Assembly (NCBI GenBank): GCA_003251775.1 | Contig: QKEK01000037.1 | Span: 1-47,449, forward strand | Source of the DNA: Clostridia bacterium | GTDB taxonomy: Bacteria; Bacillota; Clostridia; DSM-8532; SZUA-474 | Direction: 5' to 3' | Length of the DNA stretch: 47,449 nt | Shown here: positions 923 to 47,449 of the stretch, piece by piece | How positions within the stretch are numbered: position 1 is the first letter of the stretch | Layout: the number at the start of each line of letters is the position of its first letter | Made by a program: the position numbers and the translations under genes | The notes under the pieces: generated by a model | The model's input: only the letters and a program-made list of their open reading frames with translations | What the model was told of the DNA's origin: nothing | Databases searched by the model: none

Positions 923-2068
923 ATGAAGTGTAATACTTTAATCAATTTACTAAGTGAATACAATGCACAAAACATAATAGCAATTAAGCAATTAAACCCT
1001 GAAAGGGTAATCTTTCTTTCTGGAAGAAGTGAGCTTGAAAATGATATTTATGGTAACCTTAAAGCTATAATCAAAGAAAGAGGCTATCAAGGTAAAATTA
1101 TACGTGAGGTGTATACCGCGGGCAAGCTAGAAAGCATAAGTAGCATTATTAACAGGTACAAAACAAATGAAACAGTAATTAATCTGTCAGGTGGAGGGAG
1201 ACTGTCAAAGCTGTTAGCAAGACAGGCTGGTATCAAATATGACATTCAATGTGTATATATTGATTTATCAGAACAGAGTATGCTTTTACTTAAAAACAAC
1301 GGAGAGCTTGAGGTGATAGCATCTGATTTACCGGACATAACAGTTAGCGATATTATTGATATAGCTGGAGGAGAGGTTATAACACAAGCCTCTGATATCT
1401 ATGGAAAATCAATATATTTGGAATATATTGATTTTTTGGTCAATAACTATGATATGTGGAGCGAGGTAAGAGTTATTTTAAAAGATAAAAAACGTATACG
1501 TCATAACTACAATTATCCGTATAATATTATGATAAGTTTAAATAGGATTAAAAGAGAAACAATGATTTTGCTCTTTAATTTTGCAAAGAGTCTAAAGCAA
1601 TACAGGTTAGCAACGAATTATTTTTCTGTTGAAAATCAGCTTGAGATCAGATTTTCTAATAGGGAGGCAAAAAACTTTATATGTATTGTAGGAAATTGGC
1701 TTGAGGTTCTCACATATAAGGTTGTAAAGGAGATACGTGGGATAGATGATGTGAAGAGTGGTGTAAGATTTTTATGGGATGAAGATACGCCCTTGGTAGA
1801 AAATGAATTGGATGTTATCGCATCATCGCAGTCTATTCTTGCTTGCATTTCTTGTAAGGATACCTATCAATATGACACAGCAGAGCTAAACGAATTAGAA
1901 ATATACTCTCGGAAAATAGGTGGAGATCTTGTTAAAAAGGTACTTGTTGCCACATTGGAACCAGAGAATAGAATTGTTATGGATAGAGCTTATGAGATGG
2001 GAATCAATATTATTATTTTTGATGGAAATATAGAACAATTTAAAAAAAGACTAGGTGAGGTAATTTAG
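923..2068 (+). CDS. CARF-DUF1887 (Card1/Can2-like) nuclease, CRISPR-independent location
   Basis: This 381-residue protein resembles the DUF1887 family, whose Card1/Can2 members are activated by cyclic oligoadenylate and cut DNA or RNA during type III CRISPR immunity. The N-terminal half looks like a CARF Rossmann fold, with NLSGGGRLSKLLAR (about 92-105) as the ligand-loop signature. The C-terminal half has the restriction-endonuclease-like core: GNWLE, then NELDV (E295, D297) and ISCKD (K312). The ORF track starts at TTG 893. I prefer ATG 923 because the ribosome binding site lies at 905-910 and ATG 911 abuts it. No cas genes, CRISPR array or cyclase are in the window, so its activator is unknown. 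It is preceded by the conserved leader element. Confidence 0.85.
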   Translation: MKCNTLINLLSEYNAQNIIAIKQLNPERVIFLSGRSELENDIYGNLKAIIKERGYQGKIIREVYTAGKLESISSIINRYKTNETVINLSGGGRLSKLLARQAGIKYDIQCVYIDLSEQSMLLLKNNGELEVIASDLPDITVSDIIDIAGGEVITQASDIYGKSIYLEYIDFLVNNYDMWSEVRVILKDKKRIRHNYNYPYNIMISLNRIKRETMILLFNFAKSLKQYRLATNYFSVENQLEIRFSNREAKNFICIVGNWLEVLTYKVVKEIRGIDDVKSGVRFLWDEDTPLVENELDVIASSQSILACISCKDTYQYDTAELNELEIYSRKIGGDLVKKVLVATLEPENRIVMDRAYEMGINIIIFDGNIEQFKKRLGEVI

Positions 2069-2207: not shown

Positions 2208-2534
2208 ATGATAATAAAAATTCTTATCAATCTGTTTGCTATATATGGTATAATAGCTTTAGTCAGAAGTGTTATATACTGGCTAGCTTATCGAAAGGAA
2301 AAGAGACTTTTTGTAAATAAGCTAATACTCTCTATTGAAGACCCCGACTGCAACATTGAGGGAATTGTAAGAACAATAGACAAAAAGTATTTACAAGCTA
2401 TGCTATTGACAGACGGGGAGCTTTATGTGCTTAATAATACCAAAAATGAAAGTATAAGTATTATTCTAGAGAGGCTGTATGCGGACTCAGGGAGTTCATT
2501 AGCAGGGTATAAAATTGTAAGCAAAAATAAGTAA
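2208..2534 (+). CDS. Small single-span membrane protein, unknown function
   Basis: This 108-residue protein is not recognised. One hydrophobic helix lies near residues 3-26, then a basic stretch (YRKEKR), then a soluble domain of about 75 residues that begins IEDPDCNIEGIVRTI and is probably cytoplasmic. The start is supported by TAGGAG nine bases upstream. It ends 19 bases before recD2 and may be cotranscribed with it. The distinct beta-rich tail argues against a random ORF. Confidence 0.7.
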   Translation: MIIKILINLFAIYGIIALVRSVIYWLAYRKEKRLFVNKLILSIEDPDCNIEGIVRTIDKKYLQAMLLTDGELYVLNNTKNESISIILERLYADSGSSLAGYKIVSKNK

Positions 2535-18698: not shown

Positions 18699-18744
18699 AA
18701 TAATAAACCTGTTAGATAATAAAAAAAGGCAATGAAGAGGAAGA

Positions 18745-19063
18745 GTAGAATAAAAACAGTCTACAGAGAGAAAGGGTCAGCGGCTGTAAGCCTTTTCAGA
18801 TAAGATTATTTGAAAACCACCTTGGAGCCATTCATTGAATATTAGTTGTTGTTATTGTTGTGCAAACAACAAGATTCTTAAGTTGTCAGCAATCTATGAT
18901 AGCGTCAATAACTTAGGATTCATATTTTAAAAAATATGGCAGCAATTGTACTAGGTGATGTCGGGTCGTTACGTTATAAACGATATGAGTGATAGCATTA
19001 GTTGTGCTATAATTTGGGTGGAACCGCGAGATACTCTCGTCCCTTTTGGGATGGGAGTTTTTT
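18745..19063 (+). ncRNA. T-box riboswitch (threonine) controlling thrS
   Basis: The leader carries the hallmark T-box sequence GGGTGGAACCGCG (19016-19028) and an early AGAGAG motif. It ends in a terminator, CTCTCGTCCC/GGGATGGGAG followed by six T. The candidate specifier is ACC (18815-18817 or 18818-18820), a threonine codon, matching the ThrRS gene downstream. Uncharged tRNA-Thr should favour the antiterminator. The linker between stem I and the T-box (about 18865-18905) matches a segment after ftsH. Confidence 0.93.
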
Positions 19064-41344: not shown

Positions 41345-44300
41345 ATGGGGCTTAGAATAATTTATGGTAGAGCTGGAAGTGGCAAGAGTAGCTATTGCTA
41401 TAAAAAAATCGTTGAAGGACTTGAAGCTACACCTAATAAAAGGCAAGTGCTTATAGTTCCAGAGCAGCATTCTTTTGTAGCTGAAAAGCAGCTTGTAAGT
41501 CTTATAAAGAAAAATACTGGCTTAAATACAGAGGTACTAAGCTTTAACCGTTTAGCATATAGAATATTTAATGAGGTTGGTGGAGTAACACAGGAATTTG
41601 TTAATGCAGCGGGAAAGAGTATTCTGGTATATAAGGTTATGAATCAGATTAAGGGGGAGCTTGAGGTATTTTCAAAGGCTATCCATCAAAAGGGCTTTGT
41701 AAACTTAATTTCGGACACAATATCAGAATTTAAAAGGTATCACTGGAGTGAAGAGGTCTTTAATAGAATACAGAGCCAAGCTGACAGCGAATACCTTAAA
41801 AAAAAGCTATCCGAAATAAGACTTATTATGGAAAAATACGAAGAGACTCTAAGCCTAAACTATAAGGACATGGATGACACATTAAATATTCTTGCAGATC
41901 TCATATCGGAATCTGATTATTTAGAAAATGCAGAGATATGGGTAGATCAATTCACAGATTTTTCTCCGCAGCAAAGAAGAGTAATTGAGGAAATGCTATA
42001 CAAATGCTTCAGGGTTAATATCGCATTATGCACTGACTGTATTCAGGATGATAACATGCTAGAGACCGATATATTTAATTCAGTAAAAAGAGAAGCATCT
42101 CTGCTCATGAAAATAGCTGGTAACTGTAACGTCAAAATAGAATCGCCCATTTGCGTTATAAAAAATAATTTCAAAAATGATTTTAAAGGGCAGGATGAGA
42201 ATATAGAGCTACGGCATTTAGAACAACAGTTTTTCAGATACCCATATAAGAGATATGACAAAGCAACAGAGGCAATTCAATTGTTTTGTTCTACAAATAT
42301 ACATAATGAGATTGACTATACAGCAAGGCAAATAATTGCTCTTTGCAGAGATAAGGGCTATAGATATAGAGAAATAGCAATTGCTATAGGAAATTTAGAG
42401 GATTATGAAAAATTACTGGTAGCAGTGTTTGAACAGTACAAGATCCCGTATTTCATTGATAACAAGAAGGATGTGCTTGGGAATCCAGTAGCATTATTGG
42501 TATTATCCATGCTAGAAATATTCAACTCAAACTGGTCATATGAAGCAGTTTTTAAGTATCTAAAGACAGGGCTGGTTAATATAGATTGTGACCAAATTGA
42601 TAGGCTGGAGAATTATATAATAGCAACCGGAATAAAGGGTAAGGATAAGTGGACTGGTAAACATAGATGGTCGTATATTCCAGGCAACTGGAATGGGGCA
42701 ACTGCTACAGAAGAGCAAGAAAAACAGCTTGAAGAAATTGATATGATTCGAAAGGTTGTTATAGAACCGATTTTAAGCTTCCGAGAGAAAACGCTTGGTG
42801 GATGTAAGGGTAAAGAAATGTGTACAGCTCTATTTAGCTTTTTATGCGATATAGCTGTTCCAGATAAAATAGAAGAAATAACTGAACAATATAAGGCATC
42901 TGGTGAGTTTGAGGCAGCAAGTCAGTATAGTCAGGTATGGAATATCCTCATGCAATTACTTGACCAGATAGTACAGGTTATGGGAGAGGAGAAAGTAGGG
43001 GTAAGAAAATTTGCTGAGATACTCACTATAGGGCTGTCAGAATTTAAAATTGGTATTATTCCGTCGACAGTTGAACAGGTAATGGTAGGAAATGTACAGC
43101 GAAGTAAAGTAGGAAATGTTAAAGTGCTTTTTGTTATGGGTGCTAATGATGGAGTGTTACCTTCAGCAGGAATACAGGAGGGCATAATATCAGATGCAGA
43201 AAGACAAAAGCTTGAGGAGCTTGGAGCTGGTCTTGCTAAAACAACACGCCAGCAGACCTTTGAACAACAATTCCTTATATATAAGCTATTATCCTTGCCA
43301 TCTGAATACTTACATATAAGCTGGCCAATAGCCGACCATGAGGGAAGGACAATGCGGCCTTCATATATTATCTCAAGGATAAAAAAGGTTTTTCCAAAGC
43401 TATCCTCGAAAAATGACCTGATAGAGACAGAGGAGGAAATGGCACAACTTGAATACATAGCTGCACCGCTCCCAGTCTTTAATAAAATGATATTAAAAAT
43501 AAGGGAGGAAGCGGATGGTAAGAAAATGAGTGAGCCTTGGAAGACCGTCTATGCTTGGTTTGTAAATTCAGACAAATGGTCAGTGCAGGTTAAAAAAGCA
43601 CTAAGTGGCTTAGTTTATGGCTCAAAAACAGAATGGCTTTCTCGGGATAACATTTTAAAGCTTTATCCCAAAAGCATTTATACTAGTGTTACTCGATTTG
43701 AAAAGTACCAAGCCTGCCCCTTCTCATATTTTTTAAAGTATGGTTTGTCAATTAAGGAGCGAAGCACTTGCAAAATAACCTCAATGGATACTGGTAGCTT
43801 TATGCATAGTATTATAGAAAGGGTCTCAAACCAGCTAGAAGATGGTAATATAAGCTGGGAAGAGATAGACGATATATGGATAAAAGAAGCTGTAGGAAAG
43901 GCAGTGAGACTTCAACTAAAGGCTATGGGAAATGCAGGGTTTAACAGCTCTGCACGATATCAATATATGGCAAAAAGGCTTGAAAATCAGATAATTAAGG
44001 CTATTAAGCTTATAGCAGAGCAAATAAAAAGAGGAAAATTCACGCCGATAAAATATGAGGTTGCTTTTGGAAGGGGAAATAAAGCAGATTTTGATGCTGT
44101 AAGAATTGAGATAGGAGACGATGCAAGCATTGAATTATCAGGGAAAATTGACAGATTGGATATATATGAGAGTGAAGAGGATACCTTTGTAAGAATAGTT
44201 GACTATAAAACTGGAAATCGTTCACTAAGGCTTCAGGACGTTTATTATGGGTTACAGCTACAGCTACTAACATACCTTGCAGCAGTATGTCCTATGCAAA

Positions 44301-44782
44301 ATGAAGAGGGGTGGAAGCCAGGAGGCATTTTTTATCTAAAGCTACACAGCCCCATTATTAGAGCAGAAAGGACAGTATCGAAGGAGCAAGCAGAGAGAGA
44401 GATAATGAAGCAATTGAAGCTTAAGGGGTTAATACTGGCAAAACCAGAGATTGTAGATGCTATGGATACAGGCATTTCTGGAGCATCTGATATTATTCCA
44501 GTATACATAAAAAAGGACGGCAGTCTTGGAAGAGCCTCCGCTGCAACTATGGAGCAATTTAAAGTTTTACAGCAGCATATTAAGAAAACCATCAAGCAAA
44601 TCGGCCAAGAAATAATTAATGGTAATATTGCTATAAGTCCATATAAGAGTAAAAAGCAAAAAGCGTGTGATTTCTGTGAGTATAGTGCAGTTTGTGTATT
44701 TGACCCTATAACAGGAAATGGAAATTATAGATTAATGCCTGATGTTGATGAATCAGAGATTTGGAAATCTATGCATAAGTGA
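41345..44782 (+). CDS. addB: ATP-dependent helicase/deoxyribonuclease subunit B
   Basis: AddB is the second subunit of AddAB, which processes double-strand breaks for RecA. The 1145 residues are normal length. Walker A GRAGSGKSS lies near residue 8. The C-terminal nuclease domain has the catalytic IVDYKTG. The iron-sulfur cysteines frame it: FEKYQACPFSYF on one side and KACDFCEYSAVCVFD on the other. The gene is followed by addA after 104 bases, as in other Firmicutes. Confidence 0.96.
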   Translation: MGLRIIYGRAGSGKSSYCYKKIVEGLEATPNKRQVLIVPEQHSFVAEKQLVSLIKKNTGLNTEVLSFNRLAYRIFNEVGGVTQEFVNAAGKSILVYKVMNQIKGELEVFSKAIHQKGFVNLISDTISEFKRYHWSEEVFNRIQSQADSEYLKKKLSEIRLIMEKYEETLSLNYKDMDDTLNILADLISESDYLENAEIWVDQFTDFSPQQRRVIEEMLYKCFRVNIALCTDCIQDDNMLETDIFNSVKREASLLMKIAGNCNVKIESPICVIKNNFKNDFKGQDENIELRHLEQQFFRYPYKRYDKATEAIQLFCSTNIHNEIDYTARQIIALCRDKGYRYREIAIAIGNLEDYEKLLVAVFEQYKIPYFIDNKKDVLGNPVALLVLSMLEIFNSNWSYEAVFKYLKTGLVNIDCDQIDRLENYIIATGIKGKDKWTGKHRWSYIPGNWNGATATEEQEKQLEEIDMIRKVVIEPILSFREKTLGGCKGKEMCTALFSFLCDIAVPDKIEEITEQYKASGEFEAASQYSQVWNILMQLLDQIVQVMGEEKVGVRKFAEILTIGLSEFKIGIIPSTVEQVMVGNVQRSKVGNVKVLFVMGANDGVLPSAGIQEGIISDAERQKLEELGAGLAKTTRQQTFEQQFLIYKLLSLPSEYLHISWPIADHEGRTMRPSYIISRIKKVFPKLSSKNDLIETEEEMAQLEYIAAPLPVFNKMILKIREEADGKKMSEPWKTVYAWFVNSDKWSVQVKKALSGLVYGSKTEWLSRDNILKLYPKSIYTSVTRFEKYQACPFSYFLKYGLSIKERSTCKITSMDTGSFMHSIIERVSNQLEDGNISWEEIDDIWIKEAVGKAVRLQLKAMGNAGFNSSARYQYMAKRLENQIIKAIKLIAEQIKRGKFTPIKYEVAFGRGNKADFDAVRIEIGDDASIELSGKIDRLDIYESEEDTFVRIVDYKTGNRSLRLQDVYYGLQLQLLTYLAAVCPMQNEEGWKPGGIFYLKLHSPIIRAERTVSKEQAEREIMKQLKLKGLILAKPEIVDAMDTGISGASDIIPVYIKKDGSLGRASAATMEQFKVLQQHIKKTIKQIGQEIINGNIAISPYKSKKQKACDFCEYSAVCVFDPITGNGNYRLMPDVDESEIWKSMHK

Positions 44783-44886: not shown

Positions 44887-47449
44887 ATGAGTAAGACGAC
44901 AAAATGGACTCCTGAGCAGAGCGATGCAATAACTGAAAAAAACTCTAATCTATTAGTTGCAGCTGCTGCGGGTTCAGGTAAGACAGCGGTATTGGTAGAA
45001 AGAATAATAAGAAGGGTAACTGATGAAGTATCACCTATAGATATAGATAGGCTTTTAGTAGTAACCTTTACAAATGCGGCAGCTACCGAAATGAGGGAAA
45101 GGGTGGCTGATGCTTTAGCAGAGGAGATTGAAAGAAGACCAGAATGTGCAGGGCTTCAAAGACAGATGCTACTGTTAAACAGAGCAAGCATAACCACTAT
45201 TCATTCCTTTTGTATGGAGGTCATAAGAAACAATTTTCATTTACTTGACCTAGACCCTGGCTTTAGAATAGCAGACCAAACAGAAACAGTACTACTCAAA
45301 ACAGAGGCACTTGAAGAGCTATTTGAAACCCTTTACACCGAGGATATGGCAACTGATAAAGCATTTTCTGAGCTTATAGAAGGCTATAGTAGCACTAGTG
45401 AGGATACTGAGGTACAGAATCTTGTTTTAGATATACACAGCTTTGTACAAAGCTCCCCTTGGCCAGAGGAATGGCTAAACACAAGCGTAGCCTCATTAAA
45501 CATTGAAAGCAAAAGGGATTTTGGACAAACTCAATGGGGCAAGCTTTTAATAAATGATAGCAGGATGAAGCTTCAGGAGAGTAAGGACATACTAAAAAAG
45601 GCATTAAGATTAATTAATAACTCTGAGGGGACAGAGCCTTATTCACCAGCAATAGAAGCTGACCTTAAACAAGTAGATGAGATTTTATCGCTTTTTGGCA
45701 GTGACGTAGAAGCCATATGGAATGCAGTTAGTAGTAAGGTGAGCACCTTTGTATTTGAGAGACTGGGGCGTTGTCAGAAGCATGCAGATAAGGCTGCACA
45801 GGAAAGAGTTAAGGCATATCGAGAAAGTGCTAAATCAAACCTATCAGATATCAAGGAAAATATATTTAATGCCAGCTCAGAGGTCTTAATAAGCGAGCTA
45901 AGGGATATTTATCCTAGAATAAGGTGCTTGACACAGCTAGTAATAGCTTTTGATAAGCTATATGGTGAGAAGAAAAAGGAAAAAGGGCTTATTGATTTTA
46001 ATGATTTAGAGCATATGGCTCTGAATATCTTGGTAAACAAATCAGAGGACGGTAGCATGAACCCTACAGATATAGCCCTGCATTACAAGCAAAAATTTGA
46101 AGAGATTCTAATAGATGAGTATCAGGACAGCAATCTGGTACAGGAGCTTTTGTTGGGGAGTATATCAAGAAAGGATACAGATAACCCTAATTTATTCATG
46201 GTAGGAGATGTAAAGCAAAGCATATACCGCTTCAGACAGGCAAATCCAAAGCTATTTTTGGAAAAGTATAATTCATACTCTGCAAAAAAGGGAGAGAGAT
46301 GCAGAAAAATCTTGCTATACAAAAACTTCAGAAGCAGAAAGGAAATTTTAGATGGTGTAAACTACATATTTAGACAAATCATGTCTACAGATGTAGGGGA
46401 GCTTAACTATACATCTGAAGAAGCACTATTTCTTGGTGCAAGCTATCCTATGTTAAACCAAAGTGACAAAAAAGCAGATAGCCAGATAAGTGATGAAGAA
46501 GGTTATCAAAATAGTGCTACAAGTAATAAGGATACTCAAAACTTAGTACAGCAAGGGTTTAAGACCTTTGAAGGTGCAAGCATAGAGCTTCACATAATAG
46601 AAACAGGAGGAGATAAGGAAGCTTCGGATTTAGATGAGTCTACAAACGAAATAGATGGAGCTAGTACTAGAAATAATAGCAATTCAGAAATATCATCTAA
46701 TGAAGAATATGAAGCTAATTCATTTGAAGAAGAGGATAATCCAGATAATATACAATGCGAAGCACGAATAATTGCCTCTGAGATAAATAGGCTTGTTAAC
46801 CATTCAGAATACATGATATTTGATAAAGGTATTAAAGGCTACAGAAGCGTGCATTACAGAGATATTGTAATCCTATTAAGGGCAGTTAGTGGCTGGATGG
46901 AGACCTTCTCACAAGAATTTGAGGCTCAATCAGTGCCTATATATGCAGATGCAGGAACAGGGTATTTTGACACTGTAGAAATAAGTATTATGATGTCCTT
47001 ACTTAAAATAATAGATAATCCTTCTCAGGATATACCTTTTATAGCAGTGTTAAGATCAACGATAGGTGGCTTTAGTGCAGATGAGCTAGTTAATATAAGA
47101 ATAATACAAAGAGGCTTCGATGTATGAGGCATTCTGTAAATACTGTGGTGATGTTAAAGCTACTGATGAGACAGAAGGCACAGCTTCAATTAATAATGAA
47201 ATTACAGTCGATAGTATAGAAAAGAAGAGTGAAAAATTAGTTGCAAAAGCAAAAGCATTTCTATGTCAACTAGATAAATGGAGAAGCAAAGCAAGATTTA
47301 CACCGACCGATAGACTTATTTGGTACTTGTTTTCTGAAACCGGCTACTTTAGCTTTGTAGGGGCGATGCCTGCCGGTAAGCAAAAGCAGGCAAACCTGAT
47401 GCTGTTATTTCAAAGAGCACAGCAATACGAAAAAACAAGCTACAGAGGG
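44887..47449 (+). pseudogene. addA: Helicase/nuclease subunit A, with apparent frameshift and cut by window end
   Basis: AddA is the motor and nuclease subunit of AddAB (about 1200 residues). Frame 44887-47127 encodes 746 residues with WTPEQSDAITE, Walker A AAAGSGKTAVL, LIDFNDLEHMAL, LIDEYQDSNLVQE and VGDVKQSIYRFR, then stops early. From 47117 the reading continues in a second frame (SMYEAFCKYCGDVKATDET... to FTPTDRLIWYLFSETGYF) to the last base. That is the sequence expected next in AddA. The change fits one extra base near 47116. It may be a real mutation, a sequencing error, or re-initiation at ATG 47120. Confidence 0.88.

What the first reader, a model, noticed from the sequence alone, without database searches (positions are those of the whole stretch)
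923..2068. Orphan Card1/Can2-like CARF nuclease without CRISPR genes
The protein has a CARF-like half and a DUF1887 nuclease half with GNWLE, NELDV and ISCKD. Known Card1/Can2 proteins respond to cyclic oligoadenylates made by type III CRISPR complexes. Here the neighbours are ftsH, recD2 and a small membrane protein, with no cas gene or array in 47 kb. It may answer to a CRISPR locus elsewhere, to another cyclic nucleotide source, or to a stress signal. The nuclease motif has SCK where a classical ExK would be.
Basis: partly seen in the sequence, partly recalled or inferred. Interest (0 to 1): 0.7.

Follow-up and report, generated by a model that had tools for sequence, protein, structure and literature searches.

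The report
CRISPR-free CARF nuclease, relocated catalytic glutamate
This gene encodes a signal-gated nuclease of the Can2/Card1 type that normally serves CRISPR immunity, but here and in most genomes of a clostridial genus it is kept as a single chromosomal gene without the CRISPR system that would make its signal, and its catalytic site is rearranged in a way that none of the five solved relatives aligned here shows.

Summary
Window 923-2068 (+) encodes a 381-aa CARF + PD-(D/E)xK protein of the DUF1887/Can2/Card1 family. The AlphaFold2 model (pLDDT 91.7) matches VC1899 (Z 31.8) and Can2 (Z 29.6) over its full length, and the CARF signature is intact. The assembled genome (93% complete) has no Cas1, RAMP, CBASS cyclase or above-cutoff Cas10/mCpol. 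The orphan state is systematic: in a clostridial genus, 45 of 68 genomes carry one copy, 41 of those 45 lack a type III RAMP protein, and gene and RAMP are not associated (p = 0.68). Synteny with psd and dN/dS well below 1 show a maintained gene. The odd SCK motif is a clade character: in 66 nuclease domains, ECK always goes with a helix lysine, and Ser at that site always goes with a helix glutamate, at the lysine's position (52) or one turn earlier (7). In Cdn1 that lysine was placed at the scissile phosphate by docking. This resembles the relocated glutamate of NgoMIV/Cfr10I; activity and geometry remain untested. CRISPR-free members such as VC1899 are already known, so this is a new variant of a known kind. 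The ligand is unknown.

The parts
923..2068 (+). CARF-nuclease gene (DUF1887/Can2/Card1 type), 381 aa
923..1327 (+). CARF (ligand-sensing Rossmann) domain, residues 1-135; pocket signature S11, N14, N87-L-S89-G-G-G-R93, Y112, D114
   Evidence: structure match over residues 1-129 to CARF domains of Csm6, Cami1, ring nucleases at about Z 14-16; column conservation; signature from PMC4012209
1664..2065 (+). PD-(D/E)xK-type nuclease domain, residues 248-381
   Evidence: PF09002 5.6e-14 over residues 255-377; invariant columns
1703..1705 (+). E261 of GNWLE (equivalent of Cdn1 E274)
   Evidence: invariant
1805..1813 (+). E295-x-D297 of NELDV (equivalents of Cdn1 E308, D310)
   Evidence: kept in all Ser-310 domains; essential in Cdn1
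1850..1858 (+). S310-C-K312, the changed ExK motif (S310 is the column of the essential Cdn1 E323)
1892..1894 (+). E324 in helix 319-336, proposed relocated catalytic glutamate (column of Cdn1 K345)
1883..1885 (+). E321, one helical turn earlier; the site used instead of 324 in seven relatives

Best explanation
It is a stand-alone, ligand-gated nuclease of the Can2/Card1 type. Two copies pair through their CARF domains; a small nucleotide-type ligand binds the pocket at the dimer interface and brings the two nuclease domains together to cut nucleic acid with metal ions. It does not depend on a type III CRISPR system: the ligand is most likely made by, or released in, the cell by another route (an unrecognised cyclase, or RNA-end or damage signals as for the CARF protein RtcR), and the outcome is probably growth arrest or defence. 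In this clade the carboxylate normally supplied by ExK has moved to a helix glutamate (E324, or E321 in some relatives), giving a PD...SxK...E site like NgoMIV/Cfr10I. Shown here: fold, CARF signature, absence of recognised cOA synthases in the assembly, conservation, purifying selection, the pairing of Ser310 with a helix Glu. Inferred: dimer, ligand, catalytic role of E324, substrate, physiological role.
For: Fold: AF2 pLDDT 91.7, full-length match to VC1899, Can2, Cdn1, Card1. CARF signature and conserved pocket columns (N14, N87, G91, D114 invariant in 17; R/K93 in 16 of 17; Y/F112 in all). Own genome lacks Cas1, RAMP (28), SMODS (52), Cas10 over cut-off, mCpol over cut-off; the weak hits are a GGDEF-EAL protein and a response regulator. 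In the genus of G098, 45 of 68 genomes carry one copy without internal stops, 41 of 45 without RAMP, no association. Convergent psd neighbour in 16 of 29 of those loci. dN/dS 0.05-0.18 (nuclease) and 0.15-0.37 (CARF) in the 14 closest pairs. Catalytic columns kept; ECK with helix Lys 7 of 7, Ser310 with a helix Glu 59 of 59; Card1 and Cdn1 are also ECK + Lys (75). Cdn1: E323 essential, K345 at the scissile phosphate in docking. CCGG-family motif PDx21-53Kx12-13E, with BsaWI proposed to use an acidic residue about one turn earlier.
Against: No biochemistry. The Ser310/Glu324 pairing rests on few independent changes (position 310 changes twice, 324 five times; sign test not significant). Several Can2 cA4-contact positions are not kept (the T42 column is the most variable of the CARF; position 11 is Asp in most orthologs, as in VC1899), so a cOA ligand is neither shown nor excluded. 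In VC1899, the studied orphan relative, only weak cA4-independent RNase activity was seen. No conserved operon partner was found.
Confidence: 0.6

Rival explanations
1. It is an ordinary cA4/cA6-activated Can2-type effector that works in trans with type III systems that come and go (mobile, or missing from the assembly).
For: Full-length similarity to Can2/Card1; R93 and Y112 match the Can2 cA4 contacts K99 (conservatively) and Y118; own genome only 93% complete.
Against: 41 of 45 gene-bearing genomes of one genus lack RAMP genes, no association; a complete chromosome (C. manihotivorum) has the gene in a genome without RAMP; recurrent chromosomal site; T42 and S121 equivalents not kept.
Confidence: 0.17
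2. It is a VC1899-like relic or repurposed protein: the CARF half only dimerises, and the nuclease is constitutive and weak or acts in housekeeping nucleic-acid metabolism (repair, RNA turnover).
For: Closest solved structure is VC1899, an orphan with weak cA4-independent RNase activity; nuclease half more constrained than CARF; some relatives (L005, L006) have lost the CARF GG/basic motif; recD2 next door and addAB or sbcCD near several loci.
Against: CARF pocket columns are selectively conserved and the CARF evolves under purifying selection; an unregulated nuclease would be costly (inference).
Confidence: 0.15
3. Catalytically dead sensor: loss of the ExK glutamate inactivated the nuclease and the protein is a regulator.
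For: The S310 column is Cdn1 E323, whose alanine mutant is inactive.
Against: E261, E295, D297, K312 and a helix glutamate are invariant or nearly so across Ser310 proteins as little as 20% identical, and nuclease dN/dS is 0.05-0.18. L055 and L060/L061, with the Lys of xCK lost, are what decay looks like; this clade is not like them.
Confidence: 0.08

Closest known systems
VC1899 (PDB 1XMX), Vibrio cholerae DUF1887 protein
   Same: CARF + nuclease over the full length (Z 31.8); described as an orphan CARF protein without a type III system
   Different: VC1899 has IECK with a helix Lys; this protein has ISCK with a helix Glu. Of the four conserved cA4 contacts VC1899 keeps only Arg96; this protein keeps S11, R93 (conservative) and Y112
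Can2 (SthCan2, 7BDV) / Card1 (6WXW, 6XL1)
   Same: Domain order, fold, GxWxE, NELDV and xCK motifs; Z 25-30
   Different: They are cA4-activated type III effectors with ECK and helix Lys; here no type III system, SCK and helix Glu; T42 equivalent not kept
Cdn1 (9U49/8Z4I)
   Same: Fold Z 28.4; active-site residues E274/E308/D310/K325 correspond to E261/E295/D297/K312
   Different: Essential E323 is S310 here; K345 (phosphate contact in docking) is E324 here; Cdn1 sits in a type III-B locus
CCGG-family restriction enzymes NgoMIV, Cfr10I, BsaWI
   Same: PD...K...E arrangement with the second acidic residue on the helix after the Lys strand; an alternative acid about one turn earlier is proposed for BsaWI
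   Different: No CARF; spacing K-x12-13-E versus K-x11-E here; resemblance is by motif only, not tested by superposition

Membership tests
DUF1887/Can2/Card1 (PF09002, PADLOC CARF4--CARF_PDDEXK) | Card1-type nuclease domain above Pfam cut-off | tested here: met
   52.3 bits against 26.4
DUF1887/Can2/Card1 (PF09002, PADLOC CARF4--CARF_PDDEXK) | N-terminal CARF fused to the nuclease, same overall fold | tested here: met
   PADLOC 5e-109 over 1-381; Z 29.6-31.8
DUF1887/Can2/Card1 (PF09002, PADLOC CARF4--CARF_PDDEXK) | ExK half-motif of characterised members (a feature of the solved members, not of the Pfam family, which includes the SCK clade) | tested here: not met
   SxK at 310-312, shared by a whole clade
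CARF domain superfamily | Alcoholic residue at end of strand 1 and [DN]x[ST]xxx[RK] at strand 4 | tested here: met
   S11; N87-L-S89-G-G-G-R93. Pfam CARF_Card1 itself is below its cut-off
Type III CRISPR effector (Can2/Card1 in the functional sense) | Linked to or co-occurring with Cas10/RAMP genes | tested here: not met
   None in the window or assembled genome; no association in 68 genomes
Type III CRISPR effector (Can2/Card1 in the functional sense) | Binds and is activated by cA4/cA6 | not testable with these tools
   Only indirect: some contact positions kept, others not
NgoMIV/Cfr10I-type PD...SxK...E site | Non-acidic residue at the ExK acid position and an acidic residue on the next helix | tested here: met
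   S310 with E324
NgoMIV/Cfr10I-type PD...SxK...E site | K-x12-13-E spacing and superposable carboxylate | tested here: inconclusive
   Spacing is x11 (loop length varies); no coordinates to superpose

The most novel reading that the evidence does not exclude
A large clostridial clade of CARF nucleases has left CRISPR altogether: it senses a cell-made nucleotide or RNA-end signal unrelated to Cas10, and cuts with a rearranged SxK...E active site that evolved within the CARF nucleases.
Probability: 0.45. Interest if true: 0.75.

Novelty: new variant of a known kind. Interest (0 to 1): 0.52.

Why it matters
CARF domains are known mainly as receivers of Cas10-made cyclic oligoadenylates. A single-copy CARF nuclease kept in about two thirds of the sampled genomes of one clostridial genus, with or without type III CRISPR, is a tractable case for asking what else CARF nucleases sense. 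The S310/E324 swap gives a sharp, testable prediction about how the catalytic site works without the ExK glutamate.

Tried and rejected
Cas10, RAMP, Cas1, SMODS and mCpol in the own genome: nothing over cut-off; the weak Cas10 hit is a GGDEF-EAL protein and the weak mCpol hit a response regulator. Relatives in viral contigs and phages: none found; plasmids gave one orphan relative on an 809-kb Peptoclostridium replicon and, with a VC1899 fragment as query, a type III-B linked Aeromonas Can2 of the ECK type. Independent-pairs test of the 310/324 association: too few independent changes to be significant; the plain Fisher value (4e-6) ignores relatedness and is not used as evidence. Conserved operon partner: none; ftsH/recD2 here, psd in Clostridium. 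NgoMIV is not among the listed fold matches, which says nothing either way. Makarova 2020 (CARF classification) and the Card1 paper are not held, so a prior description of the SCK clade could not be excluded.

Full report
What is there. Window 923-2068 (+) encodes a 381-residue protein. Pfam places residues 255-377 in Card1_endonuc (52.3 bits, cut-off 26.4) and finds the CARF half only below threshold; PADLOC matches the whole length to a CARF4 CARF_PDDEXK model at 5e-109. A profile of six relatives hits Can2 (3.3e-17), VC1899 (3.5e-12) and a further Can2 (2.9e-7) in the PDB. An AlphaFold2 model built on 28 window and locus sequences has pLDDT 91.7 and pTM 0.84. It aligns with VC1899 at Z 31.8 over 353 residues, Can2 at 29.6, Cdn1 at 28.4 and Card1 at 25.1; the CARF half alone matches CARF domains of Csm6, Cami1 and ring nucleases at about Z 14-16.

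CARF pocket. The superfamily signature described in PMC4012209 (S/T after strand 1, [DN]x[ST]xxx[RK] at strand 4) is present as S11 and N87-L-S89-G-G-G-R93. Mapped through the alignment, the Can2 cA4 contacts S19, T42, K99 and Y118 become S11, G34, R93 and Y112. In 17 clade members N14, N87, G91 and D114 are invariant, R/K93 is kept in 16 and Y/F112 in all, while the T42 column is the most variable of the domain and position 11 is mostly Asp. A pocket is therefore kept, but not in the Can2 form, so the ligand may differ.

Orphan status. The gene is single copy in its genome. No Cas1, RAMP, SMODS cyclase or over-threshold Cas10 or mCpol was found. The weak Cas10 and mCpol hits lie in a GGDEF-EAL protein and an AraC-type response regulator, judged by reading the sequences. 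The window has no defence locus beyond generic helicase and protease matches and no CRISPR-like repeat. The assembly is 93% complete, so absence is not proof.

Relatives. A genome scan gave 19 loci, most of them from Clostridium species. Of the 19 genomes then tested (18 reached through these loci, plus the window's own), three have RAMP genes. A convergent psd (phosphatidylserine decarboxylase, by sequence reading) gene lies just downstream in 16 of 29 loci of that genus. In the 14 closest ortholog pairs dN/dS is 0.05-0.18 for the nuclease and 0.15-0.37 for the CARF part. The gene is thus largely vertically kept in that genus and maintained independently of type III CRISPR. By contrast an Aeromonas plasmid relative of the ECK type sits inside a type III-B locus. 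In the window's own order the gene is patchy: of the sampled relatives of that order only G010 and G032 have members, at 25-37% identity.

Active site. Across relatives E261, E295, D297 and K312 are kept; the ExK acid is Ser (S310-C-K312). In Cdn1 the corresponding E323 is essential. The table shows what replaces it: in 66 domains, all 7 ECK proteins have Lys at the column of E324, and all 59 Ser310 proteins have Glu there (52) or have Lys there and Glu one turn earlier at 321 (7). Card1 and Cdn1 alignments agree with ECK + Lys. The Lys in Cdn1 is K345, which docking placed in a salt bridge with the scissile phosphodiester, so this side chain should face the active site. Enzymes of the NgoMIV/Cfr10I group have the same kind of relocated acid, PD...K-x12-13-E, and BsaWI is proposed to use an acid about one turn earlier. 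The association was counted on a tree built without these columns: 310 changes twice and 324 five times, never against the rule, but this is too few for significance. I therefore treat the relocation as likely, not shown.

Mechanism. By analogy with Can2 and Cdn1 ligand binding at the CARF dimer should close the two nuclease domains on nucleic acid. What the ligand is here is open; RtcR, a CARF protein controlling an RNA repair operon described as regulated by damaged tRNAs (PMC7790460, title and abstract start), shows that a CARF signal need not come from Cas10.

Novelty. CRISPR-free members of this family were already noted (VC1899; PMC4012209), and an annotated relative is named 'DUF1887 family CARF protein'. 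What I did not find described in the papers held is the SCK/helix-Glu clade and its systematic independence from type III systems in a clostridial genus. The 2020 CARF classification could not be read.

Noticed in passing
window 18723-19047: T-box leader (Rfam RF00230, 116.7 bits).
   Followed up: no
window 2208-2534: 108-aa protein with a hydrophobic N-terminus between the CARF gene and recD2; no family match in Pfam, NCBIfam or PADLOC, not shared with the other loci.
   Followed up: partly
window 41345-44782 and 44887-47127: addB and addA at the far end of the contig; in several Clostridium loci (L022, L023, L025, L027, L029) addBA lie a few kb upstream of the CARF gene, and sbcDC in L024 and L026. 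May be coincidence.
   Followed up: partly
L005/L032 and L006/L033: Relatives from the window's own order have lost the CARF GG/basic motif (NYC.. or NNC..); L033 carries a second gene of the family directly downstream.
   Followed up: no
L055, L060, L061: Relatives in which the catalytic Lys of xCK is replaced (SCS, SCT), possibly inactive nucleases.
   Followed up: no
L024 12776-13642 and 20667-21113: Partial repeat copies of the CARF gene joined to other sequence with X residues in a C. mediterraneense contig; looks like an assembly artefact.
   Followed up: no
L065: Orphan DUF1887 CARF protein on an 809-kb Peptoclostridium replicon listed as a plasmid, no cas gene among its annotated neighbours.
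   Followed up: partly
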